Below, piece after piece: positions 24,005 to 31,738 of a stretch of DNA of 39,478 bases. Position numbers and translations under genes: made by a program. The stretch covers positions 1 through 39,478 of the forward strand of contig JADHWK010000019.1 in the NCBI GenBank assembly GCA_016783505.1, in the 5' to 3' direction. How positions within the stretch are numbered: position 1 is the first letter of the stretch; the number at the start of each line of letters is the position of its first letter. A model generated the notes under the pieces. It was not told the DNA's origin. It saw only the letters and a list, made by a program, of their open reading frames with translations, and made no database searches. Source of the stretch: Candidatus Zhuqueibacterota bacterium (GTDB taxonomy: Bacteria > BS750m-G25).

Positions 24005-24089
24005 GATCCCCTCCTTACCTAATAAAAACCCCTACGGTCTTTAATGGGATAAACAATCTTTCGCCAGAAAGAACCTTTCTAGTTATTTC

Positions 24090-24118
24090 AAAATACAAAA
24101 TTTAGGTTTTAGTTTCAA
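24090..24118 (-). promoter_or_regulatory. Sigma-70 promoter of the outer-membrane barrel gene
   Basis: TTGAAA (24113-24118), 17 bp, TATTTT (24090-24095). It overlaps the stop codon of the repeat protein at 24115. The sequence CTAAAACCTAAAT inside it is shared with the promoter at 26040-26068. Confidence 0.65.
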
Positions 24119-24504
24119 GTGTTTTTCCCCTCGGCCTTCTTTTGCTTATACCTCTCCCTCATTTTCTGCAAAATCCTCTCCCTGTTCTTTTGATAATATT
24201 TCTTGTGATATTTCCGTACATATTCCATACGCTTTTCTTTGTGTTCCTGCCTATATCTTACCCAATAATCTTTATTCCTTTGATACCTGAGACGTTGCTT
24301 AGCTTTTATTGTCTCTTTATTGTCCTCATAATACGCTTTTTGAATCGCTTTGAATTTTTCTTTATTGCGATCCAAATAATTCTTCATTATTTGTTTTCGG
24401 CGTTCCCTGTTTTCCCAGTAATATTTCCGCCATCTCTCACGAATCTTATCCCTGTTGCGCTCATAATATTTACGACTATACTCTCTTGTTTTTTCCTGAT
24501 CCAT
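24115..24504 (-). CDS. Lys/Arg/Tyr-rich 15-residue-repeat protein, copy 1
   Basis: A very basic 129-residue cytoplasmic protein made almost wholly of 15-residue units: REYSRKYYERNRDKI, RERWRKYYWENRERR, KQIMKNYLDRNKEKF, KAIQKAYYEDNKETI, KAKQRLRYQRNKDYW, a shorter one, then VRKYHKKYYQKNRERI and LQKMRERYKQKK. The consensus is roughly (K/R)xxxxxYYxxN(K/R)(D/E)xI. No signal peptide or membrane segment. Similar strings occur beside some phage and giant-virus endonucleases, which hints at nucleic-acid binding, but no catalytic domain is present. The ATG at 24504 (MDQEKT) matches the start of both paralogues (26052, 30417); an upstream TTG at 24516 is less likely. Confidence 0.8.
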   Translation of the reverse strand: MDQEKTREYSRKYYERNRDKIRERWRKYYWENRERRKQIMKNYLDRNKEKFKAIQKAYYEDNKETIKAKQRLRYQRNKDYWVRYRQEHKEKRMEYVRKYHKKYYQKNRERILQKMRERYKQKKAEGKNT

Positions 24505-24620
24505 TTTAAAAAGCAATAATGATAATTACCACTTGTTTGAAGGTGTCGCCAAGATATTATACTAACAAATGTGCTATGGTACCAATTAGGAACGCTTAAA
24601 GTGAGACAGTTATTGGATTT

Positions 24621-24809
24621 CTACTTGTTATCTTTCTTTTTATATCGAATAAGTGCTATAATTAAAAATAATATTCCTAATACAAAATGTATAACTGCTC
24701 TGGTGAAATCATCTCCAAAAAGTTTAATTCCACCGGAAATAAAATAATAAATACCCACGACCAAGAAAAGTATTATTATAATATATCTTTGGCTTTTTTT
24801 CTTTTCCAT
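24621..24809 (-). CDS. Small two-helix membrane protein
   Basis: A 62-residue protein: MEKKKSQRY, a hydrophobic helix (IIIILFLVVGIYYFISGGI), a short loop with FGDDFTR, a second helix (AVIHFVLGILFLIIALI) and a basic RYKKKDNK tail. The ATG at 24809 is chosen because GGAGAATTCAA precedes it; an upstream start would add six residues. The family is not recognised. It sits alone between the PAS gene and a repeat-protein gene. Confidence 0.7.
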   Translation of the reverse strand: MEKKKSQRYIIIILFLVVGIYYFISGGIKLFGDDFTRAVIHFVLGILFLIIALIRYKKKDNK

Positions 24810-24992
24810 TTGAATTCTCCTTCCCAATAAAGATAATTTCGCCTACCACTGCCAGTAGGAGCTTAACAGGTCACCGAAATAATGACATTATTTTATTAAT
24901 ATATACTTCCTAATCGCTGGATGTTAACCTGTTATATTGAGGATCATTTGAGTTAATCAAAGCTATCTTTTTGGTAATCAGCTCTCTATTGA

Positions 24993-25613
24993 TTAAGTCT
25001 TTCTCATATCGGAAAGCTGCTGTTTCAGCTCCTTGATTTCATTTTTCAACTCAATCATCTTCAACTCCCTGTCTACTGTGATCTTTTTGAATGTCTCCAA
25101 TTTTTCTATTTGTTCCCGTTTAATCTCCTCCGCCTTCTTGCGCTCGGTGATGTCAGTGTAGACACCGACAACCCCGATCAATTCATCCCCCACCACGATC
25201 GGGGACCCGGCCAAAATAACTTCCACTGGAGAGCCATCCTTCCGATAACGGATGGTCTCTACGGTAGGCATCTCCTTCCCGCTCAGGACTGTCTGTGTAA
25301 ATCCGACCGCTTCCTCAAAGGTATCAGAATTGGTAATCAGATCGTCAATATTTTGGCCGATCACCTCCTCCCGTGAGTATCCGAACAGCCTTGCTGCGCC
25401 TGCGTTCCATTCCACGATCCGATGGTGGGCATCCAGGGTAACGATGGCGTCGGGAGCGGCTGCCAGCACTCCCTCCAGGTACAGACGGCGCTCTTCGATT
25501 TCGCGTTCCGCCCGCTTGCGCTTGATTTCTAATGCTTCCAGTTCAGTAATTCGTTTGCGCATTTCTTCCAACTCATTTATAAGTTGGTCTTTTGTCTTTT
25601 CTTCATCTTTCAT
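24993..25613 (-). CDS. PAS-domain protein with flanking coiled coils and no output domain
   Basis: A 206-residue cytoplasmic protein. Residues 1-45 form a charged coiled coil (ELEEMRKRITELEALEIKRKRAEREI). A PAS domain with its C-terminal PAC motif spans about 46-160: AAPDAIVTLDAHHRIVEWN, AARLFGYSREEVIGQ, YRKDGSPVEVILAGSPI and GVYTDITERKKAEE. A second coiled coil (EIKREQIEKLETFKKI...LKNEIKELKQQL) ends the protein where a histidine kinase or GGDEF domain would normally follow. It may act through a partner or be a cut-down sensor. RBS GGGAG precedes the ATG at 25613. Upstream lies a 430-base region with a promoter, structured leader and terminators. Confidence 0.88.
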   Translation of the reverse strand: MKDEEKTKDQLINELEEMRKRITELEALEIKRKRAEREIEERRLYLEGVLAAAPDAIVTLDAHHRIVEWNAGAARLFGYSREEVIGQNIDDLITNSDTFEEAVGFTQTVLSGKEMPTVETIRYRKDGSPVEVILAGSPIVVGDELIGVVGVYTDITERKKAEEIKREQIEKLETFKKITVDRELKMIELKNEIKELKQQLSDMRKT

Positions 25614-25860
25614 TTAATTACTCTCCCTTACAGATAAAAAATTGCTAAATTTCCGCTGGTGATGAAGGTAAATAGCGGTTGAAAATTAATCCTGGTAAAT
25701 TGCTTTCTCCTATAAGGAAAAGGATCCAGTTAAAATGCTTTTTAGGAAAGATACATAATATTTCTCTTAAAATTATCTATTTTTTGTTTTTTCAATTTAC
25801 TTGAATTTTGAAACAGGTTCGATTAATTCTAATATAACCATTTTCTTTAAAAAAGCAAGA

Positions 25861-25902
25861 AAAAAAAAGGCCTACTCAACATGAATGAATGGGCCTTTAA
25901 AA
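25861..25902 (-). terminator. GCCTA/TAGGC-type terminator upstream of the PAS gene
   Basis: AGGCCTA pairs with TGGGCCT (one G-U) around the shared ATTCAT loop, with A/T runs outside. It is one of five copies of this element. Confidence 0.7.
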
Positions 25903-25921
25903 AAGGCTAATTTTTTTATAA

Positions 25922-25973
25922 CGAAAAAACTAACCATCGCCATCCCCTCGGGGTCAGGTGCAGCGAGGGTTAG
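25922..25973 (-). terminator. Strong intrinsic terminator or attenuator hairpin
   Basis: On the minus strand CTAACC and TCGC pair with GCGA and GGTTAG (one C-T mismatch between the blocks), enclosing a small CCCC-ga-GGGG-like hairpin, then TTTTTT. The stop codon of the leader ORF (25970-25972) is in the 5' arm. Confidence 0.7.
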
Positions 25974-26035
25974 AAAGCGAATAAATAACTCCCTCTCTTC
26001 ATCCCGTTCCTTCGGGTGGGGGTTACTAAAGGCTT
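25922..26035 (-). ncRNA. Candidate small RNA or attenuated leader (about 115 nt)
   Basis: A self-contained unit: promoter TTGACT-17-TATCTT at 26040-26068, a GC-richer body in an AT-rich region with CCCG/CGGG pairing near 26000-26015, and the hairpin terminator at 25922-25973. It contains a ten-codon ORF MKRGSYLFAF (ATG 26002) with AGGA upstream. It could be a free small RNA, or a leader that controls the PAS gene. I recognise no known RNA family. A dispersed repeat is another possibility. Confidence 0.4.
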
Positions 26036-26039
26036 TTTC

Positions 26040-26068
26040 AAGATACATAATTTAGGTTTTAGAGTCAA
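26040..26068 (-). promoter_or_regulatory. Sigma-70 promoter of the structured leader upstream of PAS
   Basis: TTGACT (26063-26068), 17 bp, TATCTT (26040-26045), overlapping the end of repeat protein copy 2; it shares CTAAAACCTAAAT with the promoter at 24090-24118. Confidence 0.65.
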
Positions 26069-26453
26069 GTTTTTTTCCCGCAACCTTCCTTTGCTGATAC
26101 CGCTCCCTCATTCTCCGCAAAATCCTTTCCCTGTTCTTCTGATAATATTCCTTTTGATATTTCCGTTCATATTCCATACGCTTTTCTTTATGTTCCTGCC
26201 TATATCTTACCCAATAATCTTTATTCCTTTGATACCTGAGGCGTTGCTTAGCTTTTATTGTCTCTTTGTTGTCTTCATAATACGCTTTTTGAATAGGTTT
26301 GAATTTTTCTTTATGTCGTTTCTGATAATTTCTCATTATTTGTAGTCGAAGTTCCCTGTTCTCGCTATGATATTTCTGCCGTTGTGCAAGAATCTTATCC
26401 CTGTTGCGCTCATAATATTTACGACGATACTCTCTTGTTTTTTCCTGATCCAT
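26052..26453 (-). CDS. Lys/Arg/Tyr-rich 15-residue-repeat protein, copy 2
   Basis: A 133-residue paralogue of copies at 24115 and 30417, starting MDQEKTREYRRKYYERNRDK. The middle units (KAIQ/KPIQKAYYEDNKETI, KAKQRLRYQRNKDYW, VRYRQEHKEKRMEY) are almost identical to copy 1 in protein and in DNA; the units on both sides have drifted more (LAQRQKYHSENRELR, LQIMRNYQKRHKEKF). There is no clear Shine-Dalgarno. The promoter (TTGATT-16-TATATT at 26494-26521) and the next 40 bases match those of copy 3. Highly basic and cytoplasmic; function unknown. Confidence 0.8.
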   Translation of the reverse strand: MDQEKTREYRRKYYERNRDKILAQRQKYHSENRELRLQIMRNYQKRHKEKFKPIQKAYYEDNKETIKAKQRLRYQRNKDYWVRYRQEHKEKRMEYERKYQKEYYQKNRERILRRMRERYQQRKVAGKKLDSKT

Positions 26454-26493
26454 TTTGAAAAGTCGGATTTGTGAAACTGATATTACCTAATTT

Positions 26494-26521
26494 AATATAG
26501 CAATAAATATCTAAAAATCAA
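26494..26521 (-). promoter_or_regulatory. Promoter of repeat protein copy 2
   Basis: TTGATT (26516-26521), 16 bp, TATATT (26494-26499). It is nearly the same sequence as the promoter of copy 3 at 30856-30883, so the control region was duplicated with the gene. Confidence 0.7.
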
Positions 26522-26537
26522 GTAAAATTTCAAAAAA

Positions 26538-26576
26538 AACAAAAAGCCTACTCAAGATGAATGAATAGGCCCTAAA
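26538..26576 (-). terminator. GCCTA/TAGGC-type terminator of the second beta-helix gene
   Basis: GCCTA (26546-26550) and TAGGC (26566-26570) around the shared loop, with T-rich tail on the minus strand; 20 bp after the beta-helix stop codon. Confidence 0.75.
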
Positions 26577-26594
26577 ATTAAAAGGGATAAAATC

Positions 26595-28460
26595 TCACTT
26601 CAGCAAAACCATCTTCCTCACCTTCTGGAACTCACCTGCATGAATTTGATAAAAATAGATTCCAGATGAATAACCGGATGCATCCCAGTTTATCTGGTAG
26701 TAACAAGCAGGTTGATGTTCATCAACTAAGGTGGCTACTTCTCGTCCGAGGATGTTGAATATTCTTAGGGTTACTTTTGAATCTTTGGGCAGGCTGTATT
26801 TGATGGTAGTTATCGGGTTGAAGGGATTGGGATAATTCGGCTTCAAGGCAAACGCCTGAGGCACATTTTCCTCGGCTTCGGATATATTTGTCTCGGCAAA
26901 TTCATCCGCCCCAATATCTACGGTGTCGCCTTGGATCCTTGCTTCACCATCTATATCGTAGTCTCCAACCCCAGGCACGTTCTCACCAGCATTGATGGCG
27001 GATGATGTGACCTGTAAATGCAGATTGGGTTCGCTCAGATCGGCAAATTGTGGCGCAATAAATAACGAGTGACTGTCGTTTCCTGTGGCTGATTGGTATG
27101 TAGCAAAGCCCTGATATATGATGTTTTGCCACTCCCACTCGCTATCTGTGATACCTGCTGGACCAAAATACAAGTTGTAATCAACTACATTATTAACGTT
27201 CTCGGTGAAGGGGTTGCCAATCAGGAGACTTTGATCGTTAGCGTAAAAGATGTTATTCTTAATTATGTTGTATCGCGTGTCGAACTGCAATAGGATTTCT
27301 TGGTTTCCATCTTCCCCTATTCCATTGTGATACAAGCTGTTATTGACGATAATACAATTCTCTGTGCTACCCCGCTCGTTGTCGTACCCGCCCATCGAAA
27401 TACCTGCCATACGGTTGTTAAACAAAAAGTTGCTACGCACGGATATATGGCTGGTAGCCCGACCCTGATGTTCGCTGGCAATTTCTATACCAATGTCTGA
27501 CTGGAAAATTGTATTTCGCTCTACGATGATGTCCCTGCCACCGTCAACATAAATGCCTCCAGCACTGTACTCATTTCCATAAGCTGGATTGCCAAACGAG
27601 GAAATGTTGTAAATTGTGTTGTTGCTGACTATTCCGTTTCGGGCCTGATCATAGTCGCTATTGGGAGCAATATCCTCAAAACCGATGAAATCTATGCCAA
27701 TGTTATCGCAATCATAGACGATGTTGTTATTAACGGTGAATAGTGTCACGTTGCCGTTTAAGACCAATCCTTCACTTGAGCCAAGGATGAGGTCGTGGAG
27801 TTCATTGCCCTCTATGAAGATGTTGTTGATAGAATCGGGAGCAGAAGTGCCATACACGGCGATACCATGTGCATCTGCACCCATAAGCTCTTCATCTACG
27901 GGAGCATTGGTTTCGATGTGGTGAATGTTGTTGTTTTTCAATTTAATGTTGTGAGCTTCGCCTCTGATGTGGATACCAACAGGGATAATGTATGGGGTGG
28001 AAGCGCGGTAATTGCGTATTTCAAAACCCTCGATAATTATATAATACTGATCCACAATCAAGAACATACCGTTGCTACTGTCAGGCACAGGCAGTCCGGT
28101 GCCGTCCAGAATGGGTACCTCGTCTTCATAGTTTCGAAAGGTGATATAGCCGTTGTCGGCGGTGCCAGATACGTTTACGGTTACTTTTTCGTTGTAAACA
28201 CCACCGCGCACGTACACGGTGTCCCCTGGAGCAAGGGTGTTAGCTGCTTTTTGAATGGTTTGCCAAGGTTCTGCTAATGTACCGGGGTTGTTATCGTCGC
28301 CATTCGGGTCCACATAGTAGGGTTGACCGATGGCTTTTGTATTCATACTTAGAATGAATAGCATTATGAACATTACACAAATCTTCAATGTTCTGGCATT
28401 TGAAGTGTTAATAATTCCAATGTTTAACATAAGTTCTAAATTACACATTTCATTTTTCAT
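26595..28460 (-). CDS. T9SS-secreted parallel beta-helix protein
   Basis: A 621-residue exported protein. After a long N-terminus with a hydrophobic signal (ICVMFIMLFILSMNTKAIGQ) it opens with YYVDPNGDDNNPGTLAEPW and GDTVYVRGGVYNEKV, the DUF1565/pectate-lyase-like start of a right-handed parallel beta-helix. Helix rungs continue to about residue 480 (NIYNISSFGN, IIVERNTIFQSDIGIEI, CIIVNNSLYHNGIG), then INAGENVPGVGDYDIDGE...VDIGADEF. A type A T9SS domain ends it (NYPNPFNPITTIKYSL...KMVLLK). RBS AGGAGG lies ten bases before ATG 28460. Promoter 28576-28604. It may be a polysaccharide lyase or binder; catalytic residues not identified. Confidence 0.92.
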   Translation of the reverse strand: MKNEMCNLELMLNIGIINTSNARTLKICVMFIMLFILSMNTKAIGQPYYVDPNGDDNNPGTLAEPWQTIQKAANTLAPGDTVYVRGGVYNEKVTVNVSGTADNGYITFRNYEDEVPILDGTGLPVPDSSNGMFLIVDQYYIIIEGFEIRNYRASTPYIIPVGIHIRGEAHNIKLKNNNIHHIETNAPVDEELMGADAHGIAVYGTSAPDSINNIFIEGNELHDLILGSSEGLVLNGNVTLFTVNNNIVYDCDNIGIDFIGFEDIAPNSDYDQARNGIVSNNTIYNISSFGNPAYGNEYSAGGIYVDGGRDIIVERNTIFQSDIGIEIASEHQGRATSHISVRSNFLFNNRMAGISMGGYDNERGSTENCIIVNNSLYHNGIGEDGNQEILLQFDTRYNIIKNNIFYANDQSLLIGNPFTENVNNVVDYNLYFGPAGITDSEWEWQNIIYQGFATYQSATGNDSHSLFIAPQFADLSEPNLHLQVTSSAINAGENVPGVGDYDIDGEARIQGDTVDIGADEFAETNISEAEENVPQAFALKPNYPNPFNPITTIKYSLPKDSKVTLRIFNILGREVATLVDEHQPACYYQINWDASGYSSGIYFYQIHAGEFQKVRKMVLLK

Positions 28461-28575
28461 TTTAGATTTCCTCCTATCAGACGCCTATTATGGATCAGCA
28501 AACTGGAATTATCCACCAGCCATAACTACAACTCAATGTCAATACCGGTCTTAAGGTGACCTTTCCTTTCGTAGG

Positions 28576-28604
28576 AATATAAGGTTTTTTTTGTTTTGTG
28601 TCAA
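28576..28604 (-). promoter_or_regulatory. Sigma-70 promoter of the second beta-helix gene
   Basis: TTGACA (28599-28604), 17 bp, TATATT (28576-28581). Confidence 0.8.
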
Positions 28605-28653
28605 GAATAAAATTCAATACTGAACGTAATCCTAAATCAAAGTATTTATTATT

Positions 28654-28870
28654 CTACTTCAACAAGATTAACTTCCGGGTCTGTGAATATTCACCAGCTT
28701 GAAGGCGGCAAAAATAAATACCGCTGGCTAAACTTGTTGCATCCCATTGAACTTTATAGAAACTAAGGTCTTAATGTGAACTTACTAATTCAGTCATTTG
28801 TTGACCTATAATGTTATAAATTCTTAAAGTAACTTCAGAAGGTTTTAGCAAGCCATATTTGAAAGCCATG
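28654..28870 (-). pseudogene. Decayed T9SS C-terminal sorting domain
   Basis: Directly behind the trypsin-like protease stop codon, the minus strand reads AFKYGLLKPSEVTLRIYNII, GQQMTELVSSH, an in-frame TAA, then SFYKVQWDATSLASGIYF, CRLQAGEYSQTRKLILLK and TAG (28654-28656). This is the last 70 residues of a type A T9SS domain with one nonsense mutation and without its NYPNPFNP start. The 3' half is close in DNA to the end of the LVIVD propeller gene near 15048-15160. It is a fossil of a lost secreted-protein gene or of an earlier tail on the protease gene. Confidence 0.85.
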
Positions 28871-28871
28871 G

Positions 28872-30404
28872 TTAGCCAGCCAAAATCACGATGATTCCCA
28901 TTAACATCAATATCATACTAAATCCAATTAGGGCTGCTGCTAATTCTGTTTTTTCTTTTTTAATAAGTTCTTTATAACCACCAGCAGCGAATTCATCTCC
29001 AGCATAAGGAGCAAAATCATCCCACGCCTTTCTAACTGTTTTTTCTGGTAAAATAACTACCTCTGGAGAATTAGAGGCTTTTCTATCATAAATTTTCAAT
29101 TTTATTGTTGGATATATCCCGTTTACAGGTTTGAATATTTTGAAATCATAATTGAAATAACCAGTCAGAACCATTTCATCAAACCCATATTTCCCATCCC
29201 AAGAAATCACAGAAAAAGCCAACGGCTGCATTATATTAGCCCGCATCATATCATTCTGTAATATGCCATTTCTGTAAACCTGAAAATCATATAAGCCTCT
29301 TTTGTATTTATAATTATAAATTAATTTAGAATATGAGTCAGAATGAATATCGCCCATTGCACCAAGTATATTCCGGATTGTCTTATTTGAAGTTTGACCT
29401 ATTATGGGAATTACTTCGAAAGATACGACAGGACTAAATCTACTTGTATTATCTGGCCATTTCTTCAAATCATTAAACAGATAGTTACTATATTGACCTT
29501 CTATATCACCATTATTCCCCCAATCTTTGCACTCTTTTGTCAATCGTAATTCAACTCGCTTTATTCGATAATAATGATATGGTGGGGTGACAACCGTTAC
29601 AAGAAAATGCCTGGTATATTTAAGTTTGGAGACATTATAAGGTTTCTCATCAAATTTTTCAACAAACATAGTCCGTTGCAAGCTTTCTAATGGAAAAATA
29701 TTTTTTGGTTGAACCGGTAATCTTTCTGTTGTAGGAGGGGTTACATTCCCTAGTATGATTTTTGCTTGTTTAATAATAGAATTATCCTTTGTTATTAAAA
29801 GACTACCCTGCATATTTGGACCTCTGTTAGGTAAATCACCAAAATTATTCATACCAACAACAATACCATCCATATTGACCAAGGGTCCACCCGAACCTTC
29901 AGGATTAATATTGATATCAGAAATAATTACATCTGGTTCAACTTTATTTACTATTCCTGCTGTCATAAATCTACCCTGATTGAACGCATTGCCAACAGCA
30001 ATGACCTTCTCCCCAATATAGACCACAGTGTCACTTGGGCTTGCTATCGGAAGTACTTCAATATTATTACAAAAAGTCTCGTTTATAAGAAGGATAGCAA
30101 CATCTTTTTCTTTGTCTGATGATAGGACAATAGCCTTCACTTTTGTTGAATCGTTCAATTGAACACGAATGTATTTTGATGATGCAATAATATGCTGATT
30201 TGTAAGAATTAATCCCCTTTTGTCAATTAAAAATCCACTTCCGTGCCCTCGGTCTCCAAAAACGGTAAATACGCTCTCCTTCACCCTATAAAAAACCCGT
30301 GCTTCTTGGCTAATTCTTCTTTGTGCAAATAGAGCGTCCAACATATTAAAAATAACAAAAATGCTTACTAATGCCATGGATCTGAATTTTTGTATTTTTG
30401 CCAT
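28872..30404 (-). CDS. Trypsin-like (HtrA-type) serine protease with C-terminal membrane helix
   Basis: A 510-residue exported protease. A signal peptide or anchor (MALVSIFVIFNMLDALFAQ) precedes a trypsin-fold domain, about residues 38-215, with a complete triad: His71 (LTNQHII), Asp101 (EKDVAIL) and Ser171 (NPEGSGGPL). No PDZ domain is seen. Residues 240-480 form an unrecognised domain, and a C-terminal hydrophobic helix (LAAALIGFSMILMLMGIIVIL) would anchor it. It begins 12 bp after repeat protein copy 3, whose 3' end contains its ribosome site (GAGGG), so the two are probably one operon with the promoter at 30856-30883. A decayed T9SS domain follows its stop codon. Confidence 0.88.
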   Translation of the reverse strand: MAKIQKFRSMALVSIFVIFNMLDALFAQRRISQEARVFYRVKESVFTVFGDRGHGSGFLIDKRGLILTNQHIIASSKYIRVQLNDSTKVKAIVLSSDKEKDVAILLINETFCNNIEVLPIASPSDTVVYIGEKVIAVGNAFNQGRFMTAGIVNKVEPDVIISDININPEGSGGPLVNMDGIVVGMNNFGDLPNRGPNMQGSLLITKDNSIIKQAKIILGNVTPPTTERLPVQPKNIFPLESLQRTMFVEKFDEKPYNVSKLKYTRHFLVTVVTPPYHYYRIKRVELRLTKECKDWGNNGDIEGQYSNYLFNDLKKWPDNTSRFSPVVSFEVIPIIGQTSNKTIRNILGAMGDIHSDSYSKLIYNYKYKRGLYDFQVYRNGILQNDMMRANIMQPLAFSVISWDGKYGFDEMVLTGYFNYDFKIFKPVNGIYPTIKLKIYDRKASNSPEVVILPEKTVRKAWDDFAPYAGDEFAAGGYKELIKKEKTELAAALIGFSMILMLMGIIVILAG

Positions 30405-30416
30405 TAATTCTACCCT

Positions 30417-30815
30417 CTATTTAATGCTTCTATTTTTCCCCTCAGTCTTCTTTTGCTTATACCTCTCCCTCATTTTCTGCAAAATACTTTCCCTGTTCTT
30501 CTGATAATATTTCTTGTAATATTTATTACCATATTCACGATAATATTCTCTTATTGTTTCTCTGTGTTCTTGCCTATATCTTACCCAATAATCTTTATTC
30601 CTTTGATACCTTTGGCGTTGCTTAGCTTTTATTGTGTCTTTGTTGTTTTCATAATACGCTTTGAATTTTTCTTTATTGCGATCCAAATAATTTTTCATTA
30701 TTTGTAGTCGGCGTTCCCTGTTTTTCCAATAATACTTCCGCCATCCATCAAGAATCTTATCCTTGTTGCGTTCATAATACCCAGGGTTATGTTTCCGTTT
30801 TCTTTCTTGATCCAT
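30417..30815 (-). CDS. Lys/Arg/Tyr-rich 15-residue-repeat protein, copy 3
   Basis: A 132-residue paralogue of 24115 and 26052, starting MDQERKRKHNPGYYERNKDK. Compared with copy 1, it has lost four residues in the fourth unit (KFKAYYENNKDTI in place of KFKAIQKAYYEDNKETI) and gained about four in the linker (RETIREYYREYGNKYYKKYY), so total length is almost kept. It lies 12 bp upstream of the trypsin-like protease on the same strand and is likely co-transcribed with it. The promoter matches that of copy 2. No enzymatic motif; function unknown. Confidence 0.8.
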   Translation of the reverse strand: MDQERKRKHNPGYYERNKDKILDGWRKYYWKNRERRLQIMKNYLDRNKEKFKAYYENNKDTIKAKQRQRYQRNKDYWVRYRQEHRETIREYYREYGNKYYKKYYQKNRESILQKMRERYKQKKTEGKNRSIK

Positions 30816-30855
30816 TTTGAAGGGTCGGATTTATGTAACTGGGATTACCTCATTT

Positions 30856-30883
30856 AATATAGCAATTAATCTTAAAAAATCAA
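30856..30883 (-). promoter_or_regulatory. Promoter of repeat protein copy 3 and the protease
   Basis: TTGATT (30878-30883), 16 bp, TATATT (30856-30861), shared with copy 2. Confidence 0.7.
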
Positions 30884-30903
30884 GTAAAAATTGAGTTAAC
30901 TTT

Positions 30904-31556: not shown

Positions 31557-31603
31557 CTCTTACCCTCCTAAATTAATAAATCTTATTTATTAATCTCAAA
31601 GAT

Positions 31604-31632
31604 AAAATAGTAAATTTTTCAGAAAAAGTCAA
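31604..31632 (-). promoter_or_regulatory. Sigma-70 promoter of the SnoaL-like gene
   Basis: TTGACT (31627-31632), 17 bp, TATTTT (31604-31609). Confidence 0.75.
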
Positions 31633-31699
31633 GTATTTAATACGGTAATTTTTGAATTTGTCTAATTTCTGTTAAGAGGGACAGTCAAATATTCAAAAA

Positions 31700-31738
31700 A
31701 CAAAAGGCCTACTCAAGATGAATGAACAGGTCTTTTTT
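31700..31738 (-). terminator. GCCTA/TAGGC-type terminator, fifth copy
   Basis: AGGCCT pairs with AGGTCT (one G-U) around the shared ATTCAT-type loop with T and A runs. It lies 280 bp past the soluble bactofilin stop. Confidence 0.65.

What the first reader, a model, noticed from the sequence alone, without database searches (positions are those of the whole stretch)
24115..30815. Three recent copies of a Lys/Arg/Tyr-rich 15-residue-repeat protein within 7 kb
Genes at 24115, 26052 and 30417 encode proteins built of 7-8 units with consensus (K/R)xxxxxYYxxN(K/R)(D/E)xI. Central units are almost identical even in DNA, while outer units differ. Copies 2 and 3 share their promoter (TTGATT-16-TATATT) and leader; copies 1 and 2 share sequence beyond the stop codon including an outward promoter. 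So whole transcription units were duplicated, each landing among secreted-protein genes. Strongly basic helical repeats without a catalytic domain suggest nucleic-acid or polyanion binding. I know of similar strings only next to some phage endonucleases; a stand-alone bacterial family may be undescribed.
Basis: partly seen in the sequence, partly recalled or inferred. Interest (0 to 1): 0.7.

Follow-up and report, generated by a model that had tools for sequence, protein, structure and literature searches.

The report
Nuclease-free repeat protein, four chromosomal copies
A little-known bacterium carries four copies of a small, strongly basic protein made only of the 15-residue repeats otherwise seen in front of phage DNA-cutting enzymes, so it has probably kept a nucleic-acid-gripping helix without the blade.

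Summary
Three minus-strand ORFs (129, 133, 132 aa) are built of 15-residue units; a fourth copy (99 aa) lies on another contig. dN/dS is 0.15-0.44 in all six pairs, so they are almost certainly translated and under purifying selection. They are not very recent (dS 0.34-0.91). The shared promoter does not show transcription-unit duplication: similar terminator-promoter modules recur at dozens of places in this genome.

The repeat matches, in the same 15-residue register, the repeat arrays of phage HNH/endonuclease-VII-type proteins; the bacterial proteins lack the nuclease and Cys-rich parts. AlphaFold gives a long helix broken at the conserved Asn of two units, as in a phage relative. One weak hit apart, I found no homologue in 385 other sampled genomes, and none in 14 genomes holding close relatives of a neighbouring protease. 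Best reading: a stand-alone, non-catalytic, cationic hinged-helix protein that binds nucleic acid. Binding is inferred, not shown.

The parts
24115..24504 (-). copy c1, 129 aa, units of 15 residues, pI 10.2, net charge +27
   Evidence: phrog_17714 E 4.9e-9
26052..26453 (-). copy c2, 133 aa, pI 10.3, net charge +26
   Evidence: AlphaFold long helix broken at N17 and N62
30417..30815 (-). copy c3, 132 aa, pI 10.2, net charge +26; 12 nt upstream of a trypsin-like protease gene (28872-30404), so possibly co-transcribed with it
26494..26521 (-). promoter-like site of c2, TTGATT-16-TATATT with TG before the second hexamer; member of a genome-wide module
30856..30883 (-). promoter-like site of c3, TTGATT-16-TATATT
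26543..26573 (-). terminator-like hairpin just upstream of the c2 promoter (after the preceding secreted-protein gene); its sequence is dispersed through the genome
26454..26530 (-). c2 promoter and leader, 84% identical to those of c3; no Shine-Dalgarno word in the 20 nt before ATG
30816..30892 (-). c3 promoter and leader
24086..24129 (-). c1 end and 3' tail shared with c2 (89% over 44 nt)
26036..26079 (-). c2 end and 3' tail shared with c1

Best explanation
The three window genes and a fourth copy elsewhere encode a stand-alone, nuclease-free form of a 15-residue repeat that phages place before HNH/endonuclease-VII-type nuclease domains. Each unit reads roughly (K/R)-x3-(K/R)-x-Y-Y-x-x-N-(K/R)-(E/D)-x-I. 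It forms about four helical turns, and the Asn caps a helix and acts as a hinge. Shown: the repeat, its register match to phage proteins, the absence of nuclease and Cys-rich domains, and purifying selection on the coding frame. Inferred: the strongly basic hinged helix (net +22 to +27) lies along nucleic acid and binds the backbone without sequence specificity, acting as a small architectural or RNA/DNA-coating protein in the cytoplasm (I see no signal peptide in the sequence). Origin by loss of a nuclease domain, or from a phage stand-alone form, is also inferred.
For: dN/dS 0.15-0.44 in 6 of 6 pairs, Fisher p 0.0024 or less; gaps are whole codons in a protein-guided alignment. A position matrix from c1+c2, scored as three units exactly 15 apart, gives 31.6-76.4 for 16 of 17 phage/viral proteins, above all 1000 local shuffles each; the 17th (L042) scores 11.7, reached by 1 of 1000. 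Of 1005 control ORFs the top two (27.4, 21.6) look like repeat proteins themselves and the next is 15.2. In phage proteins the repeat stands before HNH/endoVII-like domains. pI 10.2-10.4. Helix breaks fall on the unit Asn in c2 (N17, N62) and in phage L009 (N32, N47). The four copies sit among ordinary chromosomal genes.
Against: No direct evidence of binding to anything. A basic, Glu-rich helix could equally be a spacer or bind protein. In phage nucleases the repeat may itself be only a linker. The c2 model rests on 4 sequences (pTM 0.34) and shows breaks at only two of about eight units; the L009 model is single-sequence (pLDDT 63). Foldseek found no PDB match and phmmer with c2 none. The phage proteins in the register test were found by similarity first, so the test speaks to register, not to discovery.
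Confidence: 0.5

Rival explanations
1. Spacer or scaffold: the repeat is a long charged helix (single-alpha-helix-like or a coiled coil with 15-residue period) that holds proteins apart or oligomerises; nucleic acid is not its target.
For: AlphaFold gives an almost continuous helix; the units are rich in K/R/E and a 15-residue period fits about four turns; in several phage proteins the array lies between a Cys-rich N-terminal part and the HNH domain, where a linker would sit.
Against: Net charge +22 to +27 is far from the balanced E/K pattern of typical single helices (recalled); conserved Tyr-Tyr and Asn at fixed unit positions are not needed for a spacer; here there is nothing at either end to space apart.
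Confidence: 0.22
2. Counter-phage or counter-homing decoy: the stand-alone repeats compete with phage HNH/endoVII-type enzymes for their DNA or RNA sites, or poison their assembly.
For: Same repeat register as phage nucleases; several copies under selection; rare, patchy distribution.
Against: No defence genes were noted beside the copies (PADLOC was not run); no own-genome phrog_1035 nuclease was found; host phages are unknown.
Confidence: 0.08
3. Decaying or selfish leftovers of an invading nuclease gene, spreading with the dispersed intergenic module and having no cell function.
For: Two of the genes use the dispersed terminator/promoter module found before many other genes; none of the four has a recognisable Shine-Dalgarno word, whereas 7 of 7 neighbouring genes examined have at least GGAG or GAGG.
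Against: dN/dS below 0.45 in all pairs over a long divergence; no nuclease-bearing parent in the 60%-complete genome.
Confidence: 0.1

Closest known systems
Repeat arrays of phage HNH/endonuclease-VII-type proteins (phrog_1035, PF02945; e.g. L140-L147, L150, L151, L010-L013)
   Same: Same 15-residue register and consensus (Y at 7/8, N at 11, K/R at 12, E/D at 13, hydrophobic at 15)
   Different: The window proteins lack the HNH/endoVII-like domain and the Cys-rich N-terminal part; they are chromosomal and multi-copy
phrog_17714 and phrog_36724 (phage families, unknown function)
   Same: Best profile matches: 4.9e-9, 1.2e-6, 5.9e-4 for c1, c2, c3 against phrog_17714; profiles of 129 and 88 positions, compatible with stand-alone repeat proteins
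   Different: Matches cover positions 15-94 of 129; no function known; phage, not chromosomal
Stand-alone phage repeat proteins: Chlorobiaceae phage CV-1-33 gene 20 (L148, 204 aa) and two adjacent ORFs of Sinorhizobium phage phiM19 (L154)
   Same: Nuclease-free 15-residue repeats; in phiM19 two neighbouring copies
   Different: L148 units read more like W-x-x-x-N-P-E; the phiM19 proteins carry an N-terminal CxxC part and a shared C-terminal tail; no close identity

Membership tests
Phage HNH/endonuclease-VII-type nucleases (phrog_1035 / PF02945 / PF01844) | HNH (beta-beta-alpha-metal) catalytic domain | tested here: not met
   No Pfam, NCBIfam or PHROG nuclease match to c1-c3 except phrog_2340 at E 0.3 over the repeat of c1; no Cys in any copy, and the sequences end soon after the repeats. 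c4 was not scanned.
Phage HNH/endonuclease-VII-type nucleases (phrog_1035 / PF02945 / PF01844) | N-terminal Cys-rich segment present in many of them | tested here: not met
   0 Cys in all four copies
Phage HNH/endonuclease-VII-type nucleases (phrog_1035 / PF02945 / PF01844) | 15-residue repeat array in the same register (accessory, not defining) | tested here: met
   16 of 17 phage/viral proteins above all shuffles, the 17th reached once in 1000
phrog_17714 (unknown function) | Profile match | tested here: met
   E 4.9e-9, 1.2e-6, 5.9e-4; partial coverage, biased composition
phrog_17714 (unknown function) | Encoded by a phage or prophage | tested here: not met
   Neighbours are secreted-protein, PAS, bactofilin, tricorn-type protease, RND, patatin-like and radical-SAM-like genes (several named by eye)
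Sequence-recognisable bacterial nucleoid proteins (HU, H-NS, Lsr2 and others) | Family profile match | tested here: not met
   No Pfam or NCBIfam match of that kind for c1-c3
Nucleic-acid-binding protein (working likeness, not a family) | Measured binding to DNA or RNA | not testable with these tools
   Only charge (+22 to +27) and the phage domain context

The most novel reading that the evidence does not exclude
A bacterium has domesticated the substrate-gripping half of a phage nuclease into a multi-copy family of non-catalytic hinged-helix proteins that coat its own DNA or RNA: an undescribed kind of architectural protein built from 15-residue Asn-hinged units whose number sets the footprint on the nucleic acid.
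Probability: 0.22. Interest if true: 0.62.

Novelty: new variant of a known kind. Interest (0 to 1): 0.42.

Why it matters
The 15-residue repeat recurs in phage HNH-type proteins, but none of my paper searches listed a paper that describes it. A nuclease-free, multi-copy cellular form lets the repeat be studied apart from the blade: what it binds, whether unit number sets the footprint, and why a cell keeps it. It would also be a case of a phage enzyme's accessory part taken into chromosomal service. If it turns out to be only a spacer, it is still a clean 15-residue helical repeat for which no PDB match was found.

Tried and rejected
Central-unit DNA identity as a sign of gene conversion or an embedded signal: rejected, permutation p 0.25 and 0.20. 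Antisense ORFs (125, 109 and 84 aa opposite c1-c3) as the real genes: rejected, none of 50 aa or more opposite c4, and the minus-strand frame is the constrained one. L139 (phrog_17714 match in G224): rejected by eye, an unrelated tandem repeat. L017 (weak A1 match, E 5.2e-5) lies beside a CxxC protein with an Arg/Tyr-rich tail; that protein's search rang in 0 of 192 genomes and had no positive control. One genome-contig scan with A1 gave 87 pattern stretches and no relative; plasmid tblastn gave none; phage tblastn with c2 gave none at E<=0.01, whereas c1 gave 63 records at E<=10, many of them weak. Single-protein viral scans: c1 found L042 only, c4 none. Six paper searches: only search listings and starts of abstracts were seen, no paper was opened, and nothing relevant was listed. 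The fold search gave no match. Organism: nearest proteins of the tricorn-type protease are from a KSB1 MAG (80%), a Latescibacterota MAG (79%) and a Caldithrix MAG (75%), so probably a lineage near these; the species is not identified. Of the records found (28; 63, 40 listed), 12 regions were opened.
Full report
WHAT IS THERE. Three ORFs on the minus strand, c1 24115-24504 (129 aa; the list gives a TTG start a few codons upstream), c2 26052-26453 (133 aa) and c3 30417-30815 (132 aa), begin MDQE and are built of 15-residue units. A search of the same genome (2.5 Mb in 89 contigs, about 60% complete) finds a fourth copy, c4, 99 aa, at C57:7204-7503. c4 lacks one 15-column unit of the alignment. 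Net charges are +27, +26, +26 and +22, pI 10.2-10.4, and there is no cysteine.

IS IT CODING. Pairwise dN/dS (NG86, my script) is 0.30, 0.20, 0.15, 0.44, 0.24 and 0.21; Fisher tests of synonymous against nonsynonymous change give p from 4.6e-9 to 0.0024. The test counts were rounded and the pairs are not independent. Gaps are whole codons, but the codon alignment was made on proteins, so that is only weak support; a plain DNA alignment in the same call also shows mostly in-frame gaps inside the genes. dS of 0.34 to 0.91 means the copies are not very young.

IS THE REPEAT REAL. Lag-15 self-identity beats every one of 2000 shuffles (maximum over lags 3-45) in c1, 0.35% of shuffles reach it in c2, 24% in c3 and 9% in c4; c3 and c4 carry indels that shift the register. 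The near-identity of the central unit in DNA is not significant once all aa-invariant codon columns are considered: longest run of identical codons 11 of 53 columns, p 0.25, or 0.20 within residue type.

THE PROMOTERS. c2 and c3 do share TTGATT-16-TATATT and the stretch from there to the ATG, 84% over 77 nt. But the region upstream of c2 matches 39 places in the genome at E<=1 (c2 itself included): a terminator-like hairpin with consensus near GGCCTATTCATTCATCTTGAGTAGGC, a T-run and, in several, the same ACTTGATTTTT...TGCTATATTAAA promoter, mostly between genes of one direction and often before secreted-protein genes. A second variant (31600-31720) matches 31 places. So shared promoters are ordinary here. 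The c2/c3 leader is only partly matched elsewhere (C35:37519-37638 matches through query position 143 of 147 at 82%). c1 has a different upstream region. c1 and c2 share 44 nt around the stop. None of the four genes has a GGAG/GAGG/AGGA word in the 20 nt before ATG, whereas 7 of 7 neighbouring genes that I examined do.

WHAT IT RESEMBLES. No family in Pfam or NCBIfam reaches its cut-off; the best weak Pfam hit is NST1 (c3, E 0.00077, 20.1 bits against a cut-off of 25), a compositional match in my view. phrog_17714 matches c1, c2, c3 at 4.9e-9, 1.2e-6 and 5.9e-4 and phrog_36724 at 0.0011, 0.00018 and 0.054, both of unknown function. A profile scan of viral contigs gave 5 loci; 4 of 5 (L010-L013) match endonuclease VII families, and the fifth (L009) matches none but carries an LDHI...NH-like stretch by eye. 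tblastn in phage records with the repeat region of L010 gave 28 records at E<=0.01 and with c1 63 at E<=10. I opened 12 regions. Ten proteins end in an HNH-like domain: nine match phrog_1035, and the tenth (L147) was not scanned but has nearly the same C-terminus as L140. Two do not: L148, 204 aa of repeats, and L149, which with its neighbour in phiM19 makes two adjacent CxxC-plus-repeat proteins. L149 was not scanned against PHROGs.

REGISTER TEST. I built a position matrix from the 16 in-register units of c1 and c2 and scored the best three units exactly 15 apart. Phage/viral proteins (17: the 12 above, L009-L012, L042; L013 was not included) score 11.7 to 76.4. For 16 none of 1000 local shuffles reaches the observed score, for L042 one does. 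c3 and c4 score 75.5 and 87.6. L017 scores 29.0 (1 of 1000). Of 1005 other stop-to-stop frames of at least 100 codons from the same loci, the window and 16 further loci, the best two (27.4 and 21.6) look like repeat proteins themselves, then 15.2. An earlier version chose regions by motif and is partly circular; I rely. Outside the motif used to collect units, position 15 is I/V/L in 33 of 43 phage units and I in 11 of 19 window units, and position 5 is K/R in 32 of 43 and 16 of 19.

STRUCTURE. AlphaFold2 on c2 with the four copies gives helices 2-16, 18-61 and 63-132, pLDDT 87, pTM 0.34. The two breaks are N17 and N62, position 11 of their units. A single-sequence model of L009 (pLDDT 63 overall, 68-90 in the repeats) breaks at N32 and N47, also position 11. 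I read the Asn-(K/R)-(E/D) as a helix cap and hinge; that is inference from two models, and most units show no break. Foldseek finds no PDB match.

DISTRIBUTION. A1 hits 2 of 386 sampled genomes, one of them the window's own; the other (G285) is the weak L017. In its own phylum only this genome is held. None of 14 genomes holding close relatives of the window's tricorn-type protease (14 of 80 loci chosen) has it, nor do the 80 fetched loci. The nearest named relatives by that protease are a KSB1 MAG at 80%, a Latescibacterota MAG at 79% and a Caldithrix MAG at 75%. phrog_17714 rings in 2 of 386 (the own genome and the false L139) and in 0 of 14 control genomes. The own genome has no phrog_1035 match at E<=0.1 and two HNH matches (PF01844) on other contigs, which I did not study. 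Absence is limited by the 60% completeness and by sparse sampling.

NEIGHBOURS. OMP beta-barrel, a 68-aa membrane-like ORF, PAS protein, secreted proteins with NPFNP-type C-termini, trypsin-like protease, DUF4440/SnoaL-like, bactofilin and tricorn-type protease around c1-c3; DUF3108-like and B12/radical-SAM-like ORFs (named by eye) around c4. No phage gene was recognised there, although not every ORF was scanned. c3 lies 12 nt before the trypsin-like protease gene and could share its transcript.

MECHANISM. Best reading: a cytoplasmic, basic, Asn-hinged helical array that lies along DNA or RNA, the accessory part of a phage nuclease type without the nuclease. Shown: repeat, register kinship, missing domains, selection. 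Inferred: binding, origin, hinge. Rivals are a spacer or scaffold, a decoy against phage nucleases, and leftovers without function; the last is weakened by the dN/dS.

VERDICT. The recent-duplication claim fails. Novelty lies in a chromosomal, multi-copy, nuclease-free form of a repeat known from phage proteins but, in the six searches made, not found described.

Noticed in passing
26454-26600 and 31600-31720, plus 39 and 31 genome matches: A dispersed intergenic module (terminator hairpin near GGCCTATTCATTCATCTTGAGTAGGC, T-run, then one of at least two promoter variants) recurs across the genome, often before secreted-protein genes; it may be a spreading regulatory repeat.
   Followed up: partly
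start sites of c1-c4 (24504, 26453, 30815; L004:1510): No Shine-Dalgarno word in 4 of 4 repeat genes, against 7 of 7 neighbouring genes examined that have one; the start context TTTTCAAAATGGATCA is largely conserved.
   Followed up: partly
L154:6070-6895 (Sinorhizobium phage phiM19): Two adjacent nuclease-free ORFs with an N-terminal CxxC part, 15-residue repeats and a shared C-terminal tail; the first is not annotated as a gene on that strand.
   Followed up: partly
C35:37519-37638 (L045): Leader resembles the c2/c3 leader and continues with a GGATAGATTAAAG stretch that might be a decayed start of the repeat gene.
   Followed up: no
G000:C78:351-497 and C17:2074-2214: Two HNH-domain ORFs in the own genome, not linked to the repeat genes.
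   Followed up: no
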